From contig NZ_CP034157.1 in NCBI RefSeq assembly GCF_003860565.1, forward strand, positions 992,001 through 1,056,000: DNA of 64,000 nt, read 5' to 3'. This document shows, piece after piece, positions 3,889 to 50,417 of the stretch. This stretch comes from Cloacibacterium normanense (lineage in GTDB: Bacteria > Bacteroidota > Bacteroidia > Flavobacteriales > Weeksellaceae). The notes under the pieces are model-generated. The model worked only from the letters and a program-made list of their open reading frames with translations, was not told the origin of the DNA and ran no database searches. Position numbers and translations under genes: made by a program. The number at the start of each line of letters is the position of its first letter. Within the stretch, counting starts at the first letter, position 1.

Positions 3889-4986
3889 ATGATTTTAAAA
3901 GAATTTACTTCAGAATTAGATAAACTATTTTCGCTGAAACAAGCTGAAGATTTTGATAATGTAGGTTTGCTTTGTGGTAATCCTGCCAGAGAAGTTTCGG
4001 GTGTTTTGGTTTGTCATGATGCGCTAGAAAACGTTGTAGATGAGGCTATTTCGAAGAATTGTAATGTGATTGTAACGTTTCACCCTATTATTTTTTCTGG
4101 GTTAAAATCCATCACTGGCAAAAACTATGTAGAACGCGCAGTTCTAAAAGCCATCGAAAATAAAATTGCGATTTACGCGATTCACACAGCTTTTGATAAT
4201 GATTATTTCGGGGTGAATTATAGAATTTGTAATGAATTAGGCTTGAAAAATCAAAAAATTCTGATGCCAAAGTCAGAAAATCTTTTGCAATTGGTAGTTT
4301 ATGTTCCGTCTGATTATTCAGAGAAGGTGAAAAATGCTTTATTTGAAGCAGGTGCAGGAAATATTGGTTTCTATGATGAATGCAGTTTTTCGGTGAAAGG
4401 AAATGGAACTTTCAGACCGATTGAAGGTTCTAATCCATTTTTGGGAACTTATAATGTGAGAGAAAATGCTGATGAAGAAATGATTTCTGTGATTTTTGAA
4501 GGTTTCAAAAAGAATCAGATTTTGTCTGCGATGAAATCTGCACATCCATATGAAGAAGTGGCGTATCAACTTTATGCTTTAGAAAATGATAATCAATACG
4601 TTGGCTTAGGAAGATACGGAGAATTAGAACAAGAAATGGCAGAAAAAGATTTCTTAAAATTCGTGAAAGAAAAATTCAATTTAGAAGTGATTCGTCATTC
4701 GGAGTTTTTGAATAAAAAAATCAAAAAAGTAGGCGTTTTAGGTGGAAGTGGAGCAAGTGGAATTTCGGCAGCAAAAGCTTCTGGATGTGATGCTTACTTA
4801 ACGGGAGATGTAAAATACCACGATTTTTTCCAAAGCGAAAACCAAATGATCATCTGTGATATAGGACATTTCGAGTCAGAACAATTTGTTGCTGAGCAAT
4901 TAGTTGAGATTTTGTCGGAAAAATTTCCTACATTTGCATTCTCAAAATCCACAGAAAAAACCAACCCTGTAAATTATTTCTTTTAA
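3889..4986 (+). CDS. NIF3/YqfO-family dinuclear metal-centre protein
   Basis: A 365-residue protein of the long NIF3 form (YqfO type). The N-terminal half carries DNVGLLCGN and the metal-ligand motif TFHPIIFSGL. The C-terminal half carries GGSGASGIS, TGDVKYHDF and GHFESEQF, which supply the other ligands. Residues ~130-230 form the extra domain inserted between the halves (LQLVVYVPSDY ... SAHPYEEVAYQLY), related to the PII/CutA fold. Family members form toroidal hexamers with two metals per subunit; their biochemical role is still unclear. The next gene starts 3 bases downstream, an association common in Bacteroidota. Confidence 0.85.
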   Translation: MILKEFTSELDKLFSLKQAEDFDNVGLLCGNPAREVSGVLVCHDALENVVDEAISKNCNVIVTFHPIIFSGLKSITGKNYVERAVLKAIENKIAIYAIHTAFDNDYFGVNYRICNELGLKNQKILMPKSENLLQLVVYVPSDYSEKVKNALFEAGAGNIGFYDECSFSVKGNGTFRPIEGSNPFLGTYNVRENADEEMISVIFEGFKKNQILSAMKSAHPYEEVAYQLYALENDNQYVGLGRYGELEQEMAEKDFLKFVKEKFNLEVIRHSEFLNKKIKKVGVLGGSGASGISAAKASGCDAYLTGDVKYHDFFQSENQMIICDIGHFESEQFVAEQLVEILSEKFPTFAFSKSTEKTNPVNYFF

Positions 4987-4989
4987 GAT

Positions 4990-5769
4990 ATGGCAAAAAA
5001 AACTGTAGAAATTTCAGTAGAAGAAAAATTAAGAGCCCTTTATGATTTACAAATCATAGACTCTAGATTAGACGAAATCCGCAATACAAGAGGTGAATTA
5101 CCAATTGAGGTAGAAGATTTAGAAATCGAAATCGAAGGTCTTAACAAGAGAGCACAAAAATTCGAAAACGAAATTAAAGACTTAAATGATGACATTAATA
5201 ACAAAAAAGAAGTTATTAATCATTCTAAATCTTTGATGGAGAAATATAAATCTCAACAAGACAACGTAAGAAATAATAAAGAATTCGAAGCGCTTGCTAA
5301 AGAAATAGAATTTCAGGATTTAGAAGTTCAGTTGGCTGAAAAGAAAATCAAAGAATTTACTGCAAAAATCGCTCACAAAAATGAACTTTTAGATGAGTTG
5401 AAAGGTAAAATCGGAGAGCTAGAAAATCACTTAAACTTCAAGAAAAACGAACTTGATGCTTTAATTTCTGAAACTCAAAAAGAAGAAGATTATTTATTAG
5501 AAAAATCTAAAGAATTTGCAGAAAAAATAGACGAAAGACTATTAGCTTCTTACAAAAGAATTAGAAATAATTCTGGAAACGGATTAGCAGTAGTAGGTCT
5601 AGAAAGAGGTGCGCCAAAAGGTTCATTCTTTACCATTCCGCCACAGAAACAAATGGAAATCGCTCAGCGTAAGAAAATTATCATCGATGAGCATTCTGGT
5701 AAAATCTTGGTAGACGATGAGTTGGTAATGGAAGAGAACGAAAAAATGGCTTCTATCATTAAATTCTAA
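4990..5769 (+). CDS. Coiled-coil protein of the C4 zinc-ribbon family (DUF164), cysteine-free
   Basis: A 259-residue protein. Residues ~10-190 are a long antiparallel coiled coil rich in E, K, L and N. The last ~60 residues align with the zinc ribbon of DUF164 proteins (an ERGA-x-x-G segment, then IPPQKQMEIAQRKKIIIDEH and SGKILVDDEL). In the family, two CxxC-type pairs in this region bind zinc; here the positions read APKGS and DEHSGK, and the whole protein has no cysteine. The fold may persist without metal. It is probably co-transcribed with the NIF3-like gene, which ends 3 bases upstream. Function is unknown; family members are suggested to act in RNA or DNA transactions. Confidence 0.8.
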   Translation: MAKKTVEISVEEKLRALYDLQIIDSRLDEIRNTRGELPIEVEDLEIEIEGLNKRAQKFENEIKDLNDDINNKKEVINHSKSLMEKYKSQQDNVRNNKEFEALAKEIEFQDLEVQLAEKKIKEFTAKIAHKNELLDELKGKIGELENHLNFKKNELDALISETQKEEDYLLEKSKEFAEKIDERLLASYKRIRNNSGNGLAVVGLERGAPKGSFFTIPPQKQMEIAQRKKIIIDEHSGKILVDDELVMEENEKMASIIKF

Positions 5770-5787
5770 AAATGTTAAATCAATATA

Positions 5788-5817
5788 AATTCCGTTCTTT
5801 TTGAGCGGAATTTTTTA
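5788..5817 (+). terminator. Terminator after the NIF3/DUF164 operon
   Basis: A 10-bp stem (AATTCCGTTC/GAGCGGAATT, one G-T pair) is followed by a T run. The T run merges with the next gene's promoter box. Confidence 0.85.
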
Positions 5818-5823
5818 TTTTTG
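5816..5823 (+). promoter_or_regulatory. -7 promoter box TATTTTTG
   Basis: An exact TAnnTTTG match that overlaps the T tract of the preceding terminator. It rules out the in-frame TTG at 5821 as a start codon and supports the ATG at 5839. Confidence 0.55.
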
Positions 5824-5838
5824 CCTAAAACTGATGAT

Positions 5839-6318
5839 ATGAAAGAATTTGCGAATGCCAAAATGGATAAATGGACTTTGTTTTACACCATTTTATACAT
5901 TTTTTTCTCTATTGGAATGGTGGTTTTCATGTTCGAAACAGAAGAATCTAAATTCCCAATAATTTTGGTGGGCAGTATTCTCTCAGGAGCTTTTATTTTT
6001 ACTTATTTCATGATTCCCAAAATCAGTTTGAGTGAAAATGCAATCCATGTAAAAAATGCTTTTGTTAATTTTAAAATTTCAATTCAAGATATTTCTTATG
6101 TTGAAAAAGTAGAAAAACTAGGATTAAACATCAGAACATTTGGAGCAGGAGGCGTTTTTGGTTATTTTGGCTATTTTAATGGCAATGATGTTTGGTACGT
6201 AACCAATATTTATAAAAAAGTAAAAATTACCATGAAATCTGGGAAAATCTATATGTTTTCACCAGAAAATACAGAAGATTTTATTCAACAAATCACAAAC
6301 CTAAAATCTAAAATTTAA
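5839..6318 (+). CDS. Small membrane protein with PH-like domain
   Basis: A 159-residue protein starting at ATG 5839 (MKEFANAKMDKWTLFY). Two closely spaced hydrophobic segments (about residues 14-32 and 40-60) form a hairpin in the membrane. A cytoplasmic beta-rich domain follows, with the pattern of bacterial PH-like domains: strands ISLSENAIHVKNAF and VNFKISIQDISYVEKV, a glycine-rich FGAGGVFGYFGYF turn, and KVKITMKSGKIYMFSP before a terminal helix. I cannot assign a specific role. kdsA follows 7 bases downstream, so the two are probably co-transcribed. Confidence 0.65.
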   Translation: MKEFANAKMDKWTLFYTILYIFFSIGMVVFMFETEESKFPIILVGSILSGAFIFTYFMIPKISLSENAIHVKNAFVNFKISIQDISYVEKVEKLGLNIRTFGAGGVFGYFGYFNGNDVWYVTNIYKKVKITMKSGKIYMFSPENTEDFIQQITNLKSKI

Positions 6319-6325
6319 AGTTATA

Positions 6326-7138
6326 ATGATACAATTACTTGATAAAATTCATCACAAAGATTCTAAAAATTTCTTTTTAATTGCTGGCCCTTGCGCTATT
6401 GAAGGCGAAGAAATGGCATTTGAAATTGCCGAAAAAATTGTTAATCTTTCAGATAAATATAAAATTCCTTACATTTTTAAAGGAAGTTTTAAAAAAGCCA
6501 ACAGAAGCAGAGTAGACAGTTTCACAGGAATTGGTGACGAAAAAGCTTTAGAAATTATCAAAAAAGTAGGAGAGCATTTTAATATTCCTACTACTACAGA
6601 TATTCACGAAAACGCTCATGCAGAACTCGCAGCTTCTTATGGAGTAGATGTTTTGCAAATTCCCGCGTTTTTGGTTCGTCAGACAGACTTGGTAGTAGCT
6701 GCAGCAAAAACTGGGAAAGCCGTAACTTTGAAAAAAGGACAATTTCTTTCACCAGAATCTATGAAATTTGCGGTACAAAAAGTATTAGATTCAGGAAATG
6801 ATAAAGTAGCGATTATCGAGAGAGGAAATTCTTTCGGATATACAGATTTGGTAGTAGATTTCAGAGGAATTCCTACCATGCAACATTATGCGCCAGTGAT
6901 TTTGGACGTTACGCACTCTCTTCAACAGCCTAATCAAAATTCAGGAGTAACAGGAGGAAGACCAGAATTGATAGAAACCATTGCCAAAGCTGGAATTGCA
7001 GTAGGAACAGACGGAATTTTCATTGAAACACATCCAGATCCTTCTTGTGCAAAATCAGACGGAGCGAATATGCTAAAACTGGATTTGCTCGATGATTTAT
7101 TAGGAAAACTAACTCGAGTAAGAGAAGCAATCTTATAA
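6326..7138 (+). CDS. kdsA: 3-deoxy-8-phosphooctulonate (Kdo-8-P) synthase
   Basis: A 270-residue enzyme of normal length that condenses PEP with D-arabinose 5-phosphate to Kdo-8-phosphate, the committed step toward the lipopolysaccharide inner-core sugar Kdo. Clear motifs: AGPCAIEGEE, KGSFKKANRSR, TTDIHE, IPAFLVRQTDL, TLKKGQF, FGYTDLVVDFRGIP and ETHPDPSCAKSDG. Cys23 in AGPCAIE is the metal ligand of the metal-dependent KdsA class (the metal-independent class has Asn there), so a divalent metal is expected. The partner arabinose-5-phosphate isomerase lies in this window at 12640-13599. Confidence 0.96.
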   Translation: MIQLLDKIHHKDSKNFFLIAGPCAIEGEEMAFEIAEKIVNLSDKYKIPYIFKGSFKKANRSRVDSFTGIGDEKALEIIKKVGEHFNIPTTTDIHENAHAELAASYGVDVLQIPAFLVRQTDLVVAAAKTGKAVTLKKGQFLSPESMKFAVQKVLDSGNDKVAIIERGNSFGYTDLVVDFRGIPTMQHYAPVILDVTHSLQQPNQNSGVTGGRPELIETIAKAGIAVGTDGIFIETHPDPSCAKSDGANMLKLDLLDDLLGKLTRVREAIL

Positions 7139-42506: not shown

Positions 42507-43148
42507 ATGGCAGAAATTAAAAAAGGAATCCTTGGTGGATTTTCCGGAAAAGTAGGGCCCGTAGTTGGAGCCAATTGGCGCGGTAAAGACATTATCCGCA
42601 GTACCCCAAAATCTTCTTCGAGACCGAAGACGGATAAGCAAATTTTGCAACAACTGAAGTTTAAAACTACTATCACGTTTTTGCACCCTTTGCGCAATAT
42701 CCAAAATCGGTTTTTTGGAACAGATGCGGGAGCAAAATCTAAGGTAAACTTAGCTGCTTCTTATTTCATTAACAATGCAATAGAAATAGTAGATGGTTTA
42801 CCCGCAGTAATCTATAATAAAGTGCTCATCACTAGAGGAGACCTTACAGGTTTTCAAAATGTGGAAGCACAAGCTGCAACAGGTGGCGTGATAAATCTCA
42901 CTTGGGAAGATAATGGATTACAAGGCAACGCTTTAGCCACCGACAAAGTAAGTGTGGTATGTTATTTTGAGGCGGTCTCTGCATTTGAGATTTTTGAAGG
43001 TGTGGCGTTCCGCAGTGATGCAGAAGCCAGCATTACGCTCCACAGCTCCTATCAAGGTATGGAAGCGCAAGTCTACGCTTTTATCGCTAACGAAGCCGAA
43101 ACACAAGCCTGCAACAGTGTCTATCTGGGCTTAGTAACCTTAGGGTAA
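42507..43148 (+). CDS. DUF6266 family protein
   Basis: A 213-residue protein with the characteristic DUF6266 start MAEIKKGILGGFSGKVGPVV and GANWRGKDIIRSTPK, then FLHPLRNIQNRFFGTDAGAK and a beta-rich second half (INLTWEDNGLQGNALATDKV, VYAFIANEAETQACNSVYLG). The C-terminal half looks like an Ig-like or fibronectin-like fold. The family is restricted largely to Flavobacteriia/Bacteroidota and its function is unknown; no signal peptide is visible. Immediately upstream is the unusual 10-bp phased array. A terminator follows, and the next unit is the restriction operon. Confidence 0.85.
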   Translation: MAEIKKGILGGFSGKVGPVVGANWRGKDIIRSTPKSSSRPKTDKQILQQLKFKTTITFLHPLRNIQNRFFGTDAGAKSKVNLAASYFINNAIEIVDGLPAVIYNKVLITRGDLTGFQNVEAQAATGGVINLTWEDNGLQGNALATDKVSVVCYFEAVSAFEIFEGVAFRSDAEASITLHSSYQGMEAQVYAFIANEAETQACNSVYLGLVTLG

Positions 43149-43151
43149 GAG

Positions 43152-43177
43152 AATCCACTCGAAAGGGTGGATTTTTT
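43152..43177 (+). terminator. Terminator after the DUF6266 gene
   Basis: A 7-bp stem (AATCCAC/GTGGATT) followed by T residues. Confidence 0.85.
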
Positions 43178-43249: not shown

Positions 43250-44167
43250 ATGATAGCAAAACCTTTTTTAAAATGGGCAGGAGGAAAGACGCAGTTGATA
43301 GAACAAATAAAAGATGGTCTTCCAAAAAGTATTAACAATAAAAAATTTACTTATATAGAACCATTTGTTGGAAGTGGTGCAGTTTTATTTTGGATGATTA
43401 ATAACTTTCCAAAAATGGAAAAAGCTATTATTAATGATATTAATGAAGACTTGATTAACACCTATAAAACAATAGCTTCTAACCCTAAAGAATTAATTTC
43501 TGTCTTAGAAATTTTTCAAAATGAATATCATTCTTTTTTGAATGACGAAGAAAAGAAGAAAGAATATTTTTATGATAAAAGAATAATTTATAATGCTAGA
43601 AATGAAAATAACATTTATCAAGCTGCATTGTTTATTTTTTTAAATAGAACTTGTTTTAATGGATTGTATAGAGTTAATAGAAATAACGAATTCAATGTGC
43701 CAATAGGAAGTTATAAAAAACCGACAATTTGTGATAGTGACAATATTTTGGCAGTAAGTGAAGCGTTGCAAAAAGTGGAAATTTTAAGTGGAGATTATGA
43801 GCAAACTCTAGATTATGCTGCTAAAAATAGTTTTTTTTATTTTGATCCTCCTTATAAACCATTGAGTAATACTTCTAGTTTTAATTCTTATGCAAAAGAT
43901 GAATTTAATGATGCTGAACAAATACGATTAAGAGATTTTTGTACTAAACTAGAACAAAAAGGGCATAAATGGATGTTGAGCAACTCAGATGTTAAAGGGA
44001 AAAATCCTGAAGATAACTTCTTTGATGAACTTTATGCAAAATTTAAAATTGAAAGAGTTAAAGCAAAAAGAATTATAAATGCCAACTCCGCAAAAAGAGG
44101 AGCATTAAATGAACTACTAATAACTAATTATAAACATGAACAAACTCACAACCTTGTTGAATCTTGA
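43250..44167 (+). CDS. dpnM: DpnM-type adenine-N6 DNA methyltransferase (Dam family, GATC)
   Basis: A 305-residue alpha-class methylase. It has the SAM-binding start PFLKWAGGKTQLIEQIKDGL (residues 5-24), FVGSGAVLFWMI, the DpnM/Dam-specific RTCFNGLYRVNRNNEFNVPI and the catalytic DPPY (199-202) in FFYFDPPYKPLS. The match to M.DpnII/MboI-type enzymes implies methylation of the A in GATC to protect host DNA. It is the first gene of an operon; its last 32 bases overlap the nuclease gene, keeping methylase first in translation. Confidence 0.93.
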   Translation: MIAKPFLKWAGGKTQLIEQIKDGLPKSINNKKFTYIEPFVGSGAVLFWMINNFPKMEKAIINDINEDLINTYKTIASNPKELISVLEIFQNEYHSFLNDEEKKKEYFYDKRIIYNARNENNIYQAALFIFLNRTCFNGLYRVNRNNEFNVPIGSYKKPTICDSDNILAVSEALQKVEILSGDYEQTLDYAAKNSFFYFDPPYKPLSNTSSFNSYAKDEFNDAEQIRLRDFCTKLEQKGHKWMLSNSDVKGKNPEDNFFDELYAKFKIERVKAKRIINANSAKRGALNELLITNYKHEQTHNLVES

Positions 44168-45035
44168 GAGTGATGATGAACTTTTTAAACTCATAACATC
44201 TACCTTTAAAGAAAAAATTACGCAATGGGATTATTTTGTAGACTGGAACAAAGTTTTTAGAAATATTACCCCTATTGAAAAAGAGCTTAATCTTCTTAAT
44301 GTACTTATAGGAAAAGAAAATATAGAGGAAGAAGCTTTTGCGCTTATCAAAGAATATCCTCAGGTTCTTAGAGCTTTTCCTACGCTTATTGCCATTAGAG
44401 AAAATTCTATTGACATTCTTATAGAAACCAAAAATTTTATTTATAAAAGATTTTCTTTTACCAATAGTCTTCTCACTGATGAAGATTGCGAAGAAGCAGT
44501 AGAGTTTCTGATGAAATCTGGTATTGGAGAACTGTTAAGAGATAAAAAAATTAAAAATCTAGTAGATTACGCTACTGGTGTAGAAGTAGGTCTAGATAGT
44601 AATGGTAGAAAGAATAGAGGTGGTACGCTCATGGAAAGTTTGGTGGAGGATTTTGTGGCAGAAACTTGTAATGAACTGAATATTGGTTATATGGCACAAG
44701 CCACAGCAAGTAAAATAAAACGTGACTGGAACATTGATGTGAAGGTAGATAAATCTTCTAGAATTATAGATTTTGCAATTAACAAAAACGGGAAACTTTA
44801 TTTTATAGAATGTAATTTTTATGGAGGTGGCGGTTCTAAACTGAAATCTACCGCAACAGAATATGTAGAAATGAATAAATTCTGGACAGAGCAAGGAATA
44901 GAATTTATCTGGATAACTGATGGTGCAGGTTGGAAAAGTACGCTGAAACCTTTAAGAGAATATTTTGATAAGACTGATTATTTATTGAATCTAGAGATGT
45001 TGAAGAAATATTTTTTAAACATTATTAAGAATTAA
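44136..45035 (+). CDS. dpnB: DpnII/MboI-type restriction endonuclease (GATC)
   Basis: A 299-residue nuclease of the DpnII family. The N-terminal helical region (ITQWDYFVDWNKVFRNITPI) and GGTLMESLVEDFVAE are family features. The core is a PD-(D/E)XK variant around residues 209-230 (RIIDFAINKNGKLYFIECNF, then YGGGGSKLKST), where the family has E-x-N in place of E-x-K. It cuts unmethylated GATC. Coding overlaps dpnM by 32 bases and the next gene follows after 4 bases. Target assignment comes from family membership. Confidence 0.92.
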   Translation: MNKLTTLLNLESDDELFKLITSTFKEKITQWDYFVDWNKVFRNITPIEKELNLLNVLIGKENIEEEAFALIKEYPQVLRAFPTLIAIRENSIDILIETKNFIYKRFSFTNSLLTDEDCEEAVEFLMKSGIGELLRDKKIKNLVDYATGVEVGLDSNGRKNRGGTLMESLVEDFVAETCNELNIGYMAQATASKIKRDWNIDVKVDKSSRIIDFAINKNGKLYFIECNFYGGGGSKLKSTATEYVEMNKFWTEQGIEFIWITDGAGWKSTLKPLREYFDKTDYLLNLEMLKKYFLNIIKN

Positions 45036-45039
45036 TAAT

Positions 45040-47328
45040 ATGACCGCAGATATTCGAATTTCACTTCTTGGTAAACTTGTTAATCATGAAGAAGCACAAA
45101 AATTATTAAAGGAAAAAAGGAATGAGTATTTTTTTGAGACTATAAAACCTCATTTTCAAGAAGCCTACCTAAAAGATGGGTGGATAATTGAAAAAGAATT
45201 CAAAAATTCTATAAAAGTCAAGAAACCTAAATCTTTTGATGTTGCTTTTGAAGATGAAGTGTGGTCACTTTTTGCACTTATGGGTTATCGATTTTTAAAC
45301 AGAGATAGAAAATTTAATTTACCCTATGACAAAAGTGAAATATCCTTAACAAAACAAATTGATGTTTTTGCTAAGGATGATGAAACCATACTAATTATTG
45401 AATGTAAATCTTCTGAAACTAATACTAGAGGAGATTTTAAAAAAGATTTGGAGAGTTACCAAGGGATAATGGACGGACTAAGAAAATCTTTACAACATTT
45501 ATTTCCAAATGAAAAATTGAAATTTAAATTCATTCTTGCAACTAGAAATTTATCTATATCTGATGAAGATTTAGAGAGATTGAAAAATATTGGAGGACTC
45601 CATTTAAATGATGAAAATATAGAATATTTTTTTGAATTATATTCTCAGATTGGACAGGCAAGTAGATATCAATTTTTAGGAAATATATTTGATGGTCAAG
45701 ATATTCCTCAAATGGAAAATAAGGTTCCTGCTGTCAGAGGGAAAATGGGAGGGCATACTTATTATTCTTTTTCAATAGAACCTGAAAAACTTTTGAAAAT
45801 AGGGTATGTACTTCATAGAAATAGGGCAAATGTTAATATGATGCCAACCTATCAAAGATTAATAAAAAAATCAAGATTAAAATCAGTTGAAGATTTTATT
45901 GAAAATAATAATGGTTATTTTCCAAACTCAATAGTTATAAGTGTTGATGCAAAAAATTGTCAATTTGATCGCGCAGATACTCAAGTTAAAAGTACAATTT
46001 CTGATGTCGGAATATTGCATCTTCCAAAAAAATATAAGTCTGCGTATATAATTGATGGGCAGCATAGACTTTATGGATATTCAAACACAAGTTATAAAGA
46101 TACTAATACGATACCAGTTGTAGCATTTGTAAATTTAAGTAGAGAAGAACAAGTTAAATTGTTTATGCAAATAAATGAGAATCAAAAAGCGGTATCAAAA
46201 GACTTAAAAGAAACGTTAAAAGCTGACTTATTATGGACTTCAGAGAGATATGATGAACAAATTGATGCCTTAACATCTAGAATTGCTATAACTTTAGGCG
46301 AAAGCAGAAATTCTCCTTTATATGGAAAAATTAATATCGGTCAAGATAAAGCAGAATTAACAATACAAAATATCAAATTAGCTCTCAAGCGAAGTAAATT
46401 TATTGGAAAAGTTTCTAAAAATAAAATTGAAGAACTTGGATTAGTATATAATGGTAATTTAGATTTTACTTTTGATTGGTTAAAAAATTTCTTTATAAAG
46501 TCATTAGATTATTTAGCAAGTAATATTGAAGAGGATTGGAAAAGTGATAAATCTTTAATAGTCAGTAATAATGGAATTTATGGAATAATTTTAATTCTTA
46601 GTGATGTATTATATCATTTAAAACAAAAAGATATAATAGAAATTAAAGCAAATAATATAAATACGGTGGTTAGTGAAATCCTAACATATATTGACCCAAT
46701 TATTAATTATATCAAAACTATTGACTTTGAAGAATATGAATCTTTAAAAAAAGCATATGGTGCAGGTGGTCAAACAAAATTCTGGAGAGTTTTTCAAGAA
46801 AAAATAAGAGAGACTCATCAAAATTTTAACCCTGAGGGCTTAGATGAATATTTAAAAAAACAAGAAAGAGAATACAATGACAAAGCTTTTTCAATAATTA
46901 GAGAAATTGAAACCCATTTTAAAAAAGATTTTCGGTTAAAACTTGAAGAACATTTTGGTAAAAAATGGTTTGAAAAGGGAGTGCCACCAAAAATTGCAGA
47001 TAAAGCAATCGTAGATGCCTTGACAAAAAACAGAAGTCTTGAAGATGATGAGGAAGAAGTAGAGCATTGGGACTGCTTAACTATAATAGCATACCGTGAA
47101 ATTGCTTTAAAAAATTGGCAAACAATTTTTGAAAAAGAATATACAAAACCTGGAGAGGAAAAAATAAGTGGTGGTAAAGAGGAGAAAACCAAATGGATGG
47201 TTAAACTTGAGCATTTAAGAAATCAAAATGTACATTCTTACTATGTGAAAGAAGAAGAACTTTCATTTCTTGAAGAACTTAATGATTGGCTTATAAAAAA
47301 AGAATTAAAAAATAAGTTTCAAAAATAA
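45040..47328 (+). CDS. Composite PD-(D/E)XK - DGQHR - HEPN-like protein inside the DpnII operon
   Basis: A 762-residue protein. Residues ~70-175 look like a PD-(D/E)XK nuclease: Glu73, then KQIDVFAKDDETILIIECKS with Asp108, Glu121 and Lys123. The central part (~235-450) is a DGQHR domain (IIDGQHRLYGYS, motif at 339-343), related to DndB and the ParB/sulfiredoxin fold. The C-terminus (~690-755) is helical with KLEHLRNQNVHSYYV: Arg727 to His732 matches the RX4H motif (RNxxVH) of HEPN ribonucleases. The start lies 4 bases after the nuclease stop, and the DpnA-like methylase begins at the base after its own stop, so it is translated as part of the operon. No dnd genes are present, so a phosphorothioation role is not implied. 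Domain calls are by motif and untested. Confidence 0.8.
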   Translation: MTADIRISLLGKLVNHEEAQKLLKEKRNEYFFETIKPHFQEAYLKDGWIIEKEFKNSIKVKKPKSFDVAFEDEVWSLFALMGYRFLNRDRKFNLPYDKSEISLTKQIDVFAKDDETILIIECKSSETNTRGDFKKDLESYQGIMDGLRKSLQHLFPNEKLKFKFILATRNLSISDEDLERLKNIGGLHLNDENIEYFFELYSQIGQASRYQFLGNIFDGQDIPQMENKVPAVRGKMGGHTYYSFSIEPEKLLKIGYVLHRNRANVNMMPTYQRLIKKSRLKSVEDFIENNNGYFPNSIVISVDAKNCQFDRADTQVKSTISDVGILHLPKKYKSAYIIDGQHRLYGYSNTSYKDTNTIPVVAFVNLSREEQVKLFMQINENQKAVSKDLKETLKADLLWTSERYDEQIDALTSRIAITLGESRNSPLYGKINIGQDKAELTIQNIKLALKRSKFIGKVSKNKIEELGLVYNGNLDFTFDWLKNFFIKSLDYLASNIEEDWKSDKSLIVSNNGIYGIILILSDVLYHLKQKDIIEIKANNINTVVSEILTYIDPIINYIKTIDFEEYESLKKAYGAGGQTKFWRVFQEKIRETHQNFNPEGLDEYLKKQEREYNDKAFSIIREIETHFKKDFRLKLEEHFGKKWFEKGVPPKIADKAIVDALTKNRSLEDDEEEVEHWDCLTIIAYREIALKNWQTIFEKEYTKPGEEKISGGKEEKTKWMVKLEHLRNQNVHSYYVKEEELSFLEELNDWLIKKELKNKFQK

Positions 47329-48603
47329 ATGCTTAAACCTTATTTCAAATCAGATGATAAAATGTTCTATCTTCTTCACGGAGATACAATGAAGCTATTA
47401 TCACAATTTGAACATCAATTTGATATGGTTTTTGCAGATCCGCCTTACTTTCTTTCCAACAATGGTTTATCTATACAAAGTGGAAAAGTGGTTTCTGTTA
47501 ATAAAGGCAATTGGGATAAATCTCACGGTTTTGATTATATTAATAATTTTAATAGAACTTGGTTGCAACTGATTCGTGAAAAATTAAAGGATGATGGTAC
47601 TATTTGGATTAGTGGTACTTATCACAATATTTTTTCGGTGGGACAGATTTTGCAAGAATTAGGATTTAAGATATTAAATGTAATTACTTGGGAGAAAAAC
47701 AATCCACCACCTAATTTTTCTTGCAGATATTTTACACATTCAGCAGAGCTTATTATTTGGGCAAGAAAAAGTGAGAAAATCCCACATTATTACAATTATG
47801 AACTGATGAAACAATTGAATGGAGACAAACAAATGAAAGATGTTTGGAAACTTCCTGCAATTGCTCGTTGGGAAAAAAGTTGTGGAAAACATCCCACTCA
47901 AAAACCTTTGTCTGTCTTAACTCGTATTATATTGGCTTCAACAAAACCAGGTGCTTGGATTTTAGATCCATTTGCTGGTAGTTCTACAACAGGCATTGCT
48001 GCCAATTTAGCCAATAGAAGATATTTAGGAATAGATTTAGAAAAAGAGTTCCTAGAAATCAGTAAAAATAGAAAATTGGAAATTCTAGATTCACAAGTTG
48101 CAGAAAATTACAGAAAAAAGATAAGCGGATTTGAGACTAAAAACCAATTAAAAGAATATTTATCAGCAGAGCCTCAACCAAAAGAAAAAGTGGCTTTAGG
48201 ATATGTAAGAAGCAAAGATTTAGGTAAACTGAAAAAGACAAACACTTTTTATTTTCACGCAACAGATAAACAAGGTCATTTTATAGATTTCCCTTACGAA
48301 ATAAATAATGCTAAAAAGCTCATCATCTATTCAGGAGGAAGAACTAAACCTTTTTATCTTACAAGTTATTGTGCAGAAATTGAAAGTATAAAAATTAAGC
48401 ATAAATCTAAAATAGAAGGTAAAGAAAACTCAAAAACGGAATATTACTTTGAGGTGCAATTAAAAGAACAGTTTGTAGAAAATAATAACGTTAATTTAGA
48501 TATTGATCTTAAAAAACTTATTAAACAATATTGCAAAGAAAATCAAATAAAGTCAGCAGACTATAAACCTATTTTATTAGATGAAGTTTTTGTATACAAG
48601 TAA
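47329..48603 (+). CDS. DpnA-like DNA methyltransferase with an extra C-terminal domain
   Basis: A 424-residue beta-class N6/N4 methylase. The catalytic motif FADPPYFLS is at ~35-43 and the SAM-binding FAGSSTTGIAA at ~214-224, in the order of beta-class enzymes; HPTQKPLSVLTRIIL precedes it. In DpnII systems, DpnA (~270 residues) methylates GATC, including single-stranded DNA. Residues ~270-424 here are an extension (KVALGYVRSKDLGKLKKTNT, PFYLTSYCAEIESIKIKHKS) not found in DpnA, possibly a PUA-like or other recognition module. The start codon directly abuts the preceding stop. Confidence 0.86.
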   Translation: MLKPYFKSDDKMFYLLHGDTMKLLSQFEHQFDMVFADPPYFLSNNGLSIQSGKVVSVNKGNWDKSHGFDYINNFNRTWLQLIREKLKDDGTIWISGTYHNIFSVGQILQELGFKILNVITWEKNNPPPNFSCRYFTHSAELIIWARKSEKIPHYYNYELMKQLNGDKQMKDVWKLPAIARWEKSCGKHPTQKPLSVLTRIILASTKPGAWILDPFAGSSTTGIAANLANRRYLGIDLEKEFLEISKNRKLEILDSQVAENYRKKISGFETKNQLKEYLSAEPQPKEKVALGYVRSKDLGKLKKTNTFYFHATDKQGHFIDFPYEINNAKKLIIYSGGRTKPFYLTSYCAEIESIKIKHKSKIEGKENSKTEYYFEVQLKEQFVENNNVNLDIDLKKLIKQYCKENQIKSADYKPILLDEVFVYK

Positions 48604-48671: not shown

Positions 48672-50417
48672 ATGTCGAAACTTAATGTTGATCAAAAAAC
48701 AATAATGCTACTTTTCTCAGATAAAAAATCTGATTTTCTAATTCCTGATTATCAAAGACCTTACGCATGGGAAGAAGGACAATGTCAAACTCTTTGGGAT
48801 GACATTTTTTCTTTTGCTTTTCCAGACAATAACAGTGATAAATTTGATAGTAATGAAGAATACTTCTTGGGTTCAATTGTGACTTTTGAAAATGATAACA
48901 ATAAAAAAGAAGTAATTGATGGGCAGCAACGTTTAACTACTCTAATGCTGCTATTACGAGCTTTCTATGCAAAATTTGGAAATATGCAAGATGAGAACTC
49001 TAAAAGTACTCGTGAAAGAATTGCACAATGCTTATGGAAAACAAATGAATTTGGACAACCTAATCTAAACATACTAAAAATTGATTCCGAGGTAGCAACT
49101 GATAATGACAAAGACGAGTTTTTGGAAATACTTAAAACGGGTATTGTAAACAAAGACCAAAAAAGCAACTATGCTAAGAACTATCGTTTTTTTCAAGAGA
49201 AAATAGATAATTTTTTAAGTGAATATCCTTCATATTTTGCATATTTACCAGCAAGGATTTTAGGCAATTGCATTCTTTTGCCGATTGAAGCAGAATCTCA
49301 AGACACTGCTTTGAGAATTTTTTCAACATTAAATGATAGAGGTCTACCATTATCAGATGCTGACATTTTTAAAGCACAATTTTACAAGCATTACTCAACA
49401 AAAAATCAAAAAGACAAATTCATTGAACAATGGAAAGAACTTGAAGAAATTACAGGTAGAATTTTCAAGCCATTAAACGGCACTCCAATGGACGAACTTT
49501 TCACAAGATATATGTATTTTATTCGTGCGAAACAAGGAATAAAATCAAGCACAACAGAAGCATTACGTAAGTTTTACGAAAAAGGTAAATACTCAATTCT
49601 CAAACAAGATGATACATTATCAAATCTCAAAATTCTAGTTGATTTTTGGCATGATGTTTACAATCAAAATCAAGAAAGATTTTCAACTAAGATTCTCAGA
49701 AAACTATTCATTCTTAATTCTGCACCAAATGGTATGTGGACCTATTTTTTGTCGGTATATTTTCTACAAAATAAAAATGAAAACAATCAACTGGAAGAAA
49801 ATAAATTAGACGAATTCCTAAACAAAACAATTGCTTTTGTTTGGGCATTTGCATTTACTAATCCTGGTGTTAATGCATTGAGAACTCCTATTTATGCTGA
49901 GATGGTAAATATCGTAACAGATAAAACTGTCAATTTTGATGAACATAAATTTGACGAACATACTTTACGTACAGCAATGAATAATTTTGAGTTTAAAAAT
50001 GGTAGACCAATTACTAGATCGATGCTTACGTGGTGGGCATTCAAAGATGACCAGCAAGAAATTCCTTTTCTCAATACGAATTTTGATATAGAGCATATTT
50101 TTGCAAGAAAACGTCAAGAAAATGACAAGTCATTAAGTAATACAAAGCTACTAGAGGCTCTGGGTAATAAATCTTTACTTGAAGACAAAATAAATATCAG
50201 AGCATCTGATTATAGATTTAGTGATAAAATTAAATATTATAAAGGTTTTACAACGGATAAAGGACAACATAAAGCGGGTTCAATTATTTCTGAATTGGTT
50301 AATATCGCAGATAATAAAACCGACTTTACAGAACAAGACATAATTAGCAGAAGCGAAAAAATAGTCAGTGAATTTATTGAATTTCTAAAAGAAAAAAAAT
50401 TAATAAAAGAATATTAG
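48672..50417 (+). CDS. GmrSD-type DUF262-DUF1524 protein (type IV restriction-like)
   Basis: A 581-residue single-chain protein. The N-terminal DUF262 domain has IPDYQRPYAWEEGQ (~24-37) and the DGQQR motif (83-87, VIDGQQRLTTLMLLL). A helical middle region follows. The C-terminal DUF1524 part carries the HNH-type signature FDIEHIFARKR (~471-481), and LGNKSLLEDKIN (~497-508) in place of the usual GN-L-LL. Fused GmrS-GmrD enzymes cleave modified (for example glucosylated hydroxymethylcytosine) phage DNA, using NTPs bound by DUF262. It lies 68 bases after the DpnA-like gene on the same strand, then a terminator. Confidence 0.88.
   Translation: MSKLNVDQKTIMLLFSDKKSDFLIPDYQRPYAWEEGQCQTLWDDIFSFAFPDNNSDKFDSNEEYFLGSIVTFENDNNKKEVIDGQQRLTTLMLLLRAFYAKFGNMQDENSKSTRERIAQCLWKTNEFGQPNLNILKIDSEVATDNDKDEFLEILKTGIVNKDQKSNYAKNYRFFQEKIDNFLSEYPSYFAYLPARILGNCILLPIEAESQDTALRIFSTLNDRGLPLSDADIFKAQFYKHYSTKNQKDKFIEQWKELEEITGRIFKPLNGTPMDELFTRYMYFIRAKQGIKSSTTEALRKFYEKGKYSILKQDDTLSNLKILVDFWHDVYNQNQERFSTKILRKLFILNSAPNGMWTYFLSVYFLQNKNENNQLEENKLDEFLNKTIAFVWAFAFTNPGVNALRTPIYAEMVNIVTDKTVNFDEHKFDEHTLRTAMNNFEFKNGRPITRSMLTWWAFKDDQQEIPFLNTNFDIEHIFARKRQENDKSLSNTKLLEALGNKSLLEDKINIRASDYRFSDKIKYYKGFTTDKGQHKAGSIISELVNIADNKTDFTEQDIISRSEKIVSEFIEFLKEKKLIKEY

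What the first reader, a model, noticed from the sequence alone, without database searches (positions are those of the whole stretch)
45040..47328. Three-domain PD-(D/E)XK - DGQHR - HEPN-like protein embedded in a DpnII operon
Seen: Glu73/Asp108/Glu121/Lys123 in a nuclease-like core, DGQHR at 339-343, and RNQNVH at 727-732. Known: each module occurs in separate defence or DNA-modification proteins (Mrr-like nucleases, DndB, HEPN RNases). Inference: one polypeptide that could sense DNA state through the DGQHR domain, cut DNA with the first module and RNA with the last. The gene lies between the DpnII nuclease (4-base gap) and a second methylase (0-base gap), so it is made with the restriction system and could be a backup or abortive-infection arm that is triggered when GATC restriction fails. 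I know of no described system with this arrangement.
Basis: partly seen in the sequence, partly recalled or inferred. Interest (0 to 1): 0.85.

Follow-up and report, generated by a model that had tools for sequence, protein, structure and literature searches.

The report
Triple-domain nuclease partnered with DNA methylases
A bacterial protein that joins a DNA-cutting domain, a DNA/nucleotide-sensing domain and a probable RNA-cutting domain is usually found beside a DNA-marking enzyme, and in this genome it has been built into a classic GATC restriction operon, so it looks like the attack arm of a compact, little-described immune system.

Summary
The ORF (45040-47328, 762 aa), motifs and gene gaps are real: a PD-(D/E)XK nuclease, DGQHR (DndB/ParB-like) and Swt1-like HEPN protein. 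Correction: the conserved nuclease acid is E71, not E73. The architecture recurs in 27 collected full-length members, down to 28% identity with the window protein.

In 24 of 27 loci the gene runs with a Dam-family adenine methylase, and 18 of those lack DpnII; the other three have a radical-SAM-like gene. Only 3 of 45 control DGQHR loci have such a methylase. So it is most likely the effector of its own methylase-effector module. One clade, with this window, exchanged the original methylase for a DpnM-DpnII-methylase set without visible change in any block of the effector. A same-genus genome carries DpnI-DpnD and a leftover of the second methylase at the same spot.

A HEPN-ParB fusion (Saro_3948, probably a member) was tabulated in 2013. 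My searches found no description of the nuclease-DGQHR-HEPN plus Dam module. All activities are inferred, and HEPN rests on a conserved motif and weak matches. New variant of a known kind (R-M with linked HEPN effector).

The parts
43250..44167 (+). M1, Dam-family adenine methylase of DpnM type (motif DPPYKPL)
   Evidence: Pfam MethyltransfD12 E 1.6e-67, TIGR00571 dam E 8.3e-92; best solved relative M.DpnII 2dpm E 7.4e-58; motif
44136..45035 (+). DpnII restriction endonuclease (predicted GATC cutter)
   Evidence: Pfam DpnII E 1e-97
45040..47328 (+). three-domain effector, 762 aa (the finding)
   Evidence: 27 full-length members aligned
45217..45684 (+). PD-(D/E)XK nuclease domain, about residues 60-215
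   Evidence: model block pLDDT 87-96 over this range; Foldseek hits to Cdn1, Card1, EndoMS, AF1548, McrBC with probability 0.80-1.00, aligned range not given by the tool; PADLOC CARF_PDDEXK E 3.5e-5 on residues 91-190 of relative L061
45250..45252 (+). codon of E71, the conserved helix acid (E in 24 of 27)
45361..45363 (+). codon of D108 (D in 26 of 27)
45400..45408 (+). codons of E121-C122-K123 (E 23, C 27, K 22 of 27)
45721..46608 (+). DGQHR (DndB/ParB-like) domain, about residues 228-523
   Evidence: TIGR03187 E 4.9e-47, Pfam DndB E 4.6e-19, structural hits to viral GmrSD_N, ParB-like and DndB proteins
46054..46068 (+). codons of DGQHR 339-343, invariant in 27 of 27
46840..47295 (+). probable HEPN domain, about residues 601-752
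   Evidence: all-helical model, pLDDT 86.6; PF18731 HEPN_Swt1 E 0.0017 (below cut-off) and PDC-M34B E 1.1e-10 on relative L061; top PDB match AbiF 8vz6, weak
47218..47235 (+). codons of the R727-x4-H732 HEPN motif (R and H each 25 of 27)
47329..48603 (+). M2, second methylase (N6_N4_Mtase family), candidate DpnA counterpart; 424 aa, against 292 aa in L002, L004, L007 and 299 aa in L005 (L003 runs to the contig end)
   Evidence: Pfam N6_N4_Mtase E 2.7e-60; found in 6 of 6 DpnII-bearing loci and in none of the other 21 within the flanks held; lengths
48672..50417 (+). neighbouring GmrSD (DUF262) gene; not a conserved part of the module
   Evidence: PF03235 E 1.5e-41 and PF07510 E 8.7e-8; no BLAST match of it among the ORFs of the relatives' loci

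Best explanation
The protein is the effector ('R') arm of a compact two-gene restriction-like system whose other gene is an adenine DNA methylase (shown by gene order, not by experiment). The methylase marks self DNA. The DGQHR domain acts as an NTP/DNA-sensing switch (inferred from DndB/ParB relatives). When unmarked DNA is sensed, the N-terminal PD-(D/E)XK domain cuts DNA, and the C-terminal HEPN domain cuts RNA and stops the cell if that fails (inferred). In this genome's clade the module's original methylase has been replaced by a DpnM-DpnII-M2 set (supported by trees), so DpnM-type GATC methylation now stands in as the self mark (inferred) and the operon holds two restriction arms.
For: (1) 24 of 27 full-length members have a Dam-family methylase on the same strand: 18 directly adjacent or overlapping (gaps -50 to +67 with mechanical start codons), 6 separated only by DpnII. 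Control DGQHR loci: 3 of 45.
(2) Identities of effector and methylase correlate over 23 pairs (r 0.43) and over the 17 pairs without DpnII (r 0.61), 0 of 10,000 permutations as high in each; L062, a near copy of L061, was left out.
(3) The methylase lies upstream in 14 of the 18 DpnII-less pairs and downstream in 4, which form one clade, so the association survived a rearrangement.
(4) The three exceptions each have a radical-SAM-type gene nearby: annotated so in L034 and L035, a neighbour of L065; all three are below the Pfam cut-off.
(5) PD-(D/E)XK structural matches, DGQHR, HEPN residues.
(6) DpnII-bearing effectors are one clade (100/99) nested among methylase-only effectors, while their methylases form a separate clade (95/95) with DPPYKPL against DPPYT[VI]xH in the other 18 (89/99). 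Four of the methylase-only partners (L036, L037, L061, L064) have PADLOC profile PDLC03266 as best match; M1's best is another, PDLC03735.
(7) A DndB-like protein binds ATP and GTP in vitro (PMC12704722, passages).
Against: No activity has been measured. The nuclease site is altered in 6 of 27 members and the HEPN site in 2 of 27, so neither is universal; no member has lost both, which these numbers do not make significant. The effector shows no diverged block when its methylase changes (ratio of between- to within-group identity 0.72-1.14 over the windows, 5 diagnostic positions), which is not expected of a site-specific enzyme keyed to one methylase. HEPN rests on a motif and weak matches (PF18731 below cut-off; AbiF match E 1.4, probability 0.51). 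No PDB structural match of the whole model reached E 0.001, and unrelated proteins (ABC transporters, aIF5B) stand among the hits with low probability. Ten loci of methylase-only pairs show GATC at 0.47-1.16 of expectation, so their target is probably not GATC and is unknown. The methylase ORF in L060 is only 175 aa and covers the second half. The methylase tree holds two very long branches. Relatives were gathered by similarity, not drawn at random.
Confidence: 0.58

Rival explanations
1. Guard or second-line effector: held inactive while the neighbouring R-M machinery works, released when restriction fails or is inhibited by a phage, and then stops the cell through HEPN (and DNA cutting).
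For: The effector kept the same sequence pattern when its methylase partner changed, which fits sensing a general state and not one site. In this window it sits inside a DpnII operon. HEPN-R-M coupling of this kind was proposed in PMC3710099 (section 10).
Against: In 18 of 27 loci no DpnII was found and the methylase-effector pair stands directly together; I did not survey every neighbour for other restriction enzymes. No inhibitory partner comparable to Hsd subunits was seen in the window operon.
Confidence: 0.25
2. Type IV-like enzyme that attacks modified DNA (for example methylated or hypermodified phage DNA), like GmrSD/SspE relatives of the DGQHR fold.
For: The DGQHR fold resembles GmrSD_N and ParB-like proteins (PMC4619093 passages). 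A GmrSD gene lies just downstream in the window. DpnI, an enzyme for methylated GATC, occupies the same spot in a same-genus genome.
Against: It travels with a methylase in 24 of 27 loci; an enzyme that attacked that mark would be suicidal. G080, which has DpnI, shows no D12 methylase, while the window has M1. Against this argument: G089 has a D12 methylase and a DpnI-family gene side by side.
Confidence: 0.09
3. Regulator: a DndB-like repressor or titrator of the methylase operon, with the flanking nuclease and HEPN domains mainly structural.
For: DndB was described as an ATP-dependent negative regulator of the dnd genes (PMC10853773 and PMC12704722 passages). The nuclease site is altered in 6 of 27 members.
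Against: HEPN R and H are kept in 25 of 27 and a full nuclease site in 21 of 27 down to 28% identity. A repressor would not need them.
Confidence: 0.08

Closest known systems
HEPN-ParB fusion proteins prototyped by Saro_3948 (Anantharaman et al. 2013, PMC3710099, Table 1)
   Same: ParB-type domain fused to a HEPN domain, listed apparently under the Abi2/Swt1 group (passages). My relative L034 is a Novosphingobium aromaticivorans pNL1 protein (SARO_RS17535) and is probably the same gene; the old locus tag was not checked.
   Different: The table row names only ParB and HEPN. In the passages and the one section that I read there is no PD-(D/E)XK domain and no Dam-methylase pairing for this family.
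DpnII (DpnM-DpnA-DpnB) system and the pneumococcal DpnI/DpnII alternative
   Same: M1 is DpnM-type, DpnII is present, M2 is a candidate DpnA, and DpnI-DpnD occupies the same locus in a same-genus genome. Pneumococci hold either DpnI or DpnII (PMC3573125, start of abstract and passages); that the two share one chromosomal place there is recalled.
   Different: An extra three-domain effector lies between DpnII and the second methylase.
PrrC/EcoprrI and RloC (HEPN anticodon nucleases linked to or independent of R-M)
   Same: HEPN RNase tied to restriction; possible abortive second line (PMC3710099 section 10).
   Different: No ABC ATPase found; DNase, sensor and RNase are in one chain; the partner is a Type II-like methylase and not a Type I complex.
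DndB, DpdB, SspE and GmrSD (DGQHR/DUF262 family)
   Same: DGQHR or DGQQR domain of ParB-like fold; DpdB profile E 2.6e-25 over 228-532.
   Different: Scores lie far below the curated cut-offs for DpdB (87.3 of 300) and DGQHR_dnd_1 (94.8 of 450); PD-(D/E)XK and HEPN are fused on.
PD-Lambda-5 (Vassallo et al. 2022, PMC9519451)
   Same: Called by its authors a compacted prophage version of an RM+Abi system (passage); M1 matches PD-Lambda-5_B at E 1.4e-15.
   Different: The window effector has no match to a PD-Lambda-5 profile at E up to 1.

Membership tests
DGQHR domain (TIGR03187) | score above the curated cut-off | tested here: met
   161 bits, cut-off 58.85; DGQHR 27 of 27
DpdB (NF041060) | score above the curated cut-off | tested here: not met
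   87.3 bits, cut-off 300
Dnd-associated DGQHR protein 1 (TIGR04172) | score above the curated cut-off | tested here: not met
   94.8 bits, cut-off 450
PD-(D/E)XK nuclease superfamily | fold | tested here: met
   Foldseek hits to Cdn1, Card1, EndoMS, AF1548, McrBC (their membership is recalled) with probability 0.80-1.00; best E 0.0016, none at or below 0.001
PD-(D/E)XK nuclease superfamily | conserved acid, D and ExK residues | tested here: met
   window protein E71, D108, E121, K123; the set with K or R at 123 in 21 of 27 members
HEPN | R-x4-6-H motif (recalled definition) in a helical domain | tested here: met
   R727-x4-H732, 25 of 27; all-helical model
HEPN | structural match to a solved HEPN protein | tested here: inconclusive
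   AbiF 8vz6 is the top hit but E 1.4, probability 0.51
HEPN_Swt1 (PF18731) | score above the Pfam cut-off | tested here: not met
   not listed for the window protein; 19.0 of 27.5 bits for the C-terminus of relative L061 and 23.3 of 27.5 for stand-alone L077
HEPN | RNase activity | not testable with these tools
   needs an assay
Type II R-M system | cognate methylase encoded next to the restriction protein | tested here: met
   24 of 27 loci
Type II R-M system | site-specific cleavage blocked by the cognate methylation | not testable with these tools
   no block of the effector tracks the methylase change, which speaks against strict site specificity
DpnII R-M system (window operon) | DpnM-type methylase, DpnII nuclease and second methylase in one operon | tested here: met
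   M2 as DpnA is inferred from family and co-occurrence in 6 of 6 loci
PrrC-like guard | inactive complex with the restriction enzyme, released on its inhibition | not testable with these tools
   needs biochemistry

The most novel reading that the evidence does not exclude
One effector protein that works with interchangeable DNA-modifying partners (two Dam-family clades, and perhaps radical-SAM enzymes): the DGQHR domain would read the presence of a self mark or the state of the modification enzyme and not a particular sequence, so new self marks can be adopted without changing the effector. This would be a modification-agnostic restriction effector with combined DNA and RNA attack.
Probability: 0.2. 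Interest if true: 0.85.

Novelty: new variant of a known kind. Interest (0 to 1): 0.6.

Why it matters
If right, a module found here in Bacteroidota MAGs, alphaproteobacterial plasmids and viral contigs joins DNA cutting, self/non-self sensing and RNA cutting in one chain and can change its methylase partner. That makes a long-standing question testable: how an R-M effector stays safe when its methylase is exchanged, and whether DGQHR/ParB domains read DNA marks directly. It also points to a DpnI/DpnII-type exchange in this (probably Bacteroidota) genus, with an extra effector on the DpnII side.

Tried and rejected
Rejected: (a) 'embedded in DpnII operons' as the defining context, because only 6 of 27 members have DpnII. 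(b) E73 as catalytic. (c) The GmrSD gene as a part of the module: no BLAST match among ORFs of the relatives' loci; in G080 an Mrr gene sits there instead. (d) GATC as the target of the methylase-only pairs: 10 of their loci show GATC observed/expected 0.47-1.16, against 0.17-0.26 in four loci of the window's genus and 0.29-0.46 in three DpnII-bearing MAG loci. The ranges nearly touch (L074 0.47, L006 0.54), the loci are about 20 kb and acquisition may be recent, so this is not decisive. (e) A recognition block in the effector that changes with the methylase: none seen. (f) PDB matches by sequence: none useful.

Led nowhere: viral scan with the Novosphingobium protein (no match); viral scans gave no new full-length member; E. 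coli genomes by distant DNA search (no match); L009 was an unrelated hit; the promoter scan was below the shuffled mean (31 found, 42.0 expected); a paired-GATC pattern in the own genome (0 matches, 12 and 12 for the reversed control) was not pursued.

Dropped before counts: L001, L010-L012, L023, L041-L045 and L080-L087 are re-finds of loci already counted; of 5 plasmid records with full-length hits I used 2 (the others appear to be the same elements). L061 and L062 are 96% alike and both counted among the 27. L066 has a second, upstream D12 methylase without the shared motifs, left out of the motif count and of the correlation. The 45 control loci hold six re-finds of the same genome place, so 39 distinct places; 2 of the 3 positives (L071, L072) look alike. 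L004 lacks its first residues (in-frame stop at codon 18 of the MAG). The Fisher value ignores relatedness and is not used as evidence. Genome tallies are lower bounds, since only the best two or three candidates per genome were scored.
Full report
What is there. The window ORF 45040-47328 (+) encodes 762 aa. It lies in a run of same-strand genes: M1 (43250-44167, Dam family), DpnII (44136-45035), the finding (45040-47328), M2 (47329-48603, N6/N4 methylase), then a GmrSD gene (48672-50417). A terminator-like stem (43148-43177) follows the gene upstream, and none was reported on the + strand between M1 and the end of M2. G+C is about 27-32% from 43.0 to 51.0 kb, against 33-42% over 38-43 kb and 37-38% over 50.5-53 kb. 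This would suit acquired DNA, but 53-55 kb is as low (29%), so composition alone proves nothing.

The three domains. Middle: DGQHR/DndB (TIGR03187 E 4.9e-47, Pfam DndB E 4.6e-19). An AlphaFold2 model from 17 sequences has mean pLDDT 85.1 and pTM 0.55, so the domains are good and their arrangement is uncertain. Foldseek against the PDB lists Cdn1, VC1899, Card1, EndoMS, AF1548 and McrBC with probability 0.80-1.00 (best E 0.0016). I read these as matches of the N-terminal domain; that they are PD-(D/E)XK proteins is recalled, and the tool does not give the aligned range. Lower-probability hits include unrelated large proteins. Against viral models it lists GmrSD_N, ParB-like and DndB proteins (16 hits at E up to 0.001). 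The C-terminal part alone models as all-helical (pLDDT 86.6); its top PDB match is the HEPN protein AbiF (8vz6), but weak (E 1.4, probability 0.51). By sequence the same region of relative L061 matches HEPN_Swt1 (E 0.0017, below the cut-off) and the PADLOC candidate PDC-M34B (E 1.1e-10; 0.0098 for the window protein). A stand-alone 217-aa relative of this domain sits beside a KAP NTPase on a Phyllobacterium plasmid (49% identity to relative L037). I accept HEPN as likely, not proven.

Relatives and residues. I collected 27 full-length members including the window: 7 from genome contigs, 8 from genome searches, 2 plasmid representatives and 9 viral contigs. Full-length members in sampled genomes, own genome included, as lower bounds: 4 of 296 in the family, 3 of 395 in the phylum and 7 of 395 in the order with the profile. 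In all 27, DGQHR is invariant. R727 and H732 are in 25 (absent together in L059 and L060). E71 is in 24, D108 in 26, E121 in 23 and K123 in 22. Six members have an altered nuclease site and two an altered HEPN site; none has both, but with these numbers that is not significant.

The partner. In 24 of 27 loci a Dam-family methylase lies on the same strand. In 18 it is directly adjacent or overlapping, with no DpnII found; in 6 DpnII lies between. In L060 the methylase ORF is a 175-aa piece. The three exceptions carry a radical-SAM-type gene. In L034 and L035 it comes with a small DGQHR gene, GHKL-type ATPases and a PIN-like gene; in L065 it is next door, with B12-binding and radical-SAM matches below cut-off. 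Control: 45 loci of other DGQHR proteins (39 distinct places), 3 with such a methylase within 1.3 kb. Those positives include a methylase / 165-178-aa protein, membrane-like by eye / DGQHR arrangement (L071, L026). Effector and methylase identities correlate (r 0.43 over 23 pairs, 0.61 over the 17 without DpnII, 0 of 10,000 permutations in each).

Exchange of the methylase. The 18 partner methylases without DpnII group together (89/99) and share DPPYT[VI]xH; the six DpnII-linked ones form another group (95/95) with DPPYKPL, as E. coli Dam has DPPYAPL. The tree holds two very long branches (E. coli Dam and the second methylase of L066). At the position of E. coli Dam Y138 the 18 have R or K and the six have Y; its role in contacting the first base pair is recalled. 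PADLOC's best profile is PDLC03266 for four methylase-only partners tested and PDLC03735 for M1. In the effector tree the DpnII-bearing members are one clade (100/99) nested inside the methylase-only members. So one clade most likely exchanged its methylase for a DpnM-DpnII-M2 set. M2 occurs in those six loci and was found in none of the other 21. Between DpnII-bearing effectors and the nearest methylase-only ones no block is specially diverged, and only 5 positions are diagnostic. Either the recognised state is not the exact methylation site, or the change of site was small.

The locus. In G080, same genus, the flanks match (DUF6266 protein 99%, YkuD 91%), but from the M1 start codon (window 43253) to window 47962, inside M2, the sequence is replaced by DpnI (PF06044 E 1.3e-79, PF17726 E 1e-33) and DpnD (PF14207 E 3.9e-10), with a 175-aa leftover of M2's C-terminus at 97.7% identity; GmrSD is replaced by Mrr. 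No D12 methylase and no DpnII was found in G080. Near ykuD, G056 has McrBC, an AAA protein and a Type I R subunit, G070 has McrBC and an AAA protein behind a transposase (its 1062-aa gene was not scanned), and G039 has a transposase. This looks like a restriction hot spot with a DpnI/DpnII-type exchange; pneumococci hold either DpnI or DpnII (PMC3573125, start of abstract and passages). GATC is avoided in the window (43 found, 184 expected, lowest of 16 palindromes) and in four same-genus loci (0.17-0.26), but GGCC and CCGG are low too, and GATC is the lowest in only one of those four.

How it probably works. Shown: architecture, conservation, pairing. Supported by trees: exchange. Inferred: the methylase marks self; the DGQHR domain is an NTP- and DNA-dependent switch (a DndB-like protein binds ATP and GTP in vitro, PMC12704722 passages); unmarked DNA triggers DNA cutting, with RNA cutting as growth arrest. 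The guard reading stays open because the effector did not visibly change with its methylase.

Prior art. PMC3710099 lists HEPN-ParB fusions (Saro_3948) and proposes HEPN as a second-line effector of R-M systems (passages and section 10). My searches for DGQHR, DndB+HEPN, HEPN+ParB with R-M or fusion terms, Swt1, DpnII+HEPN and DndB-like listed no paper whose title or shown abstract start describes the full module. I read passages of 7 papers in all and one section of one of them; most subscription journals and preprints are not covered.

Verdict. Real, conserved and more interesting in its partner than in its DpnII setting. New variant of a known kind: R-M with a linked HEPN effector. Interest 0.6.

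Noticed in passing
L114 (G080) 4625-6423, against window 43250-48603: A same-genus genome has DpnI-DpnD at the place of DpnM-DpnII-effector, sharing the start-codon position, with a C-terminal leftover of M2: a DpnI/DpnII-type cassette exchange.
   Followed up: yes
L115/L118 (G089), e.g. L118 674-2283: A Dam-type methylase (DPPYHPI, GRYK) and a DpnI-family gene overlap by one base on one strand; if both were active on GATC this should be self-destructive. Unexplained.
   Followed up: no
window whole; loci L111-L114: GATC is about 4-fold under-represented (43 found, 184 expected in the window; observed/expected 0.17-0.26 in four same-genus loci), also in three genomes where neither DpnI nor DpnII was found; GGCC and CCGG are low as well.
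   Followed up: partly
L071 1689-4160, L072, L026: Dam-family methylase, a small protein of 165-178 aa (membrane-like by eye; L072 not read in detail) and a stand-alone DGQHR gene in a row: possibly the same sensor idea with a membrane effector.
   Followed up: partly
L034 11347-19391 and L035 5185-15573: On alphaproteobacterial plasmids the effector sits with a small DGQHR protein, a radical-SAM protein, two ATP-binding proteins (GHKL-type where scanned) and a PIN-like protein: a possible unknown DNA-modification system.
   Followed up: partly
L102 7977-8630: Stand-alone HEPN-like 217-aa protein, 49% identical to the C-terminal domain of relative L037, beside a KAP NTPase gene on a Phyllobacterium plasmid.
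   Followed up: partly
window 48190-48603 (end of M2): M2 has a C-terminal extension with no Pfam match; L002, L004 and L007 stop at 292 aa and L005 at 299, while L003 is cut by the contig end.
   Followed up: no
L002 8157-8981: The DpnII of the closest relative is only 35% identical to the window's, while its effector is 74% identical: the nuclease gene itself seems to have been exchanged within the operon.
   Followed up: no
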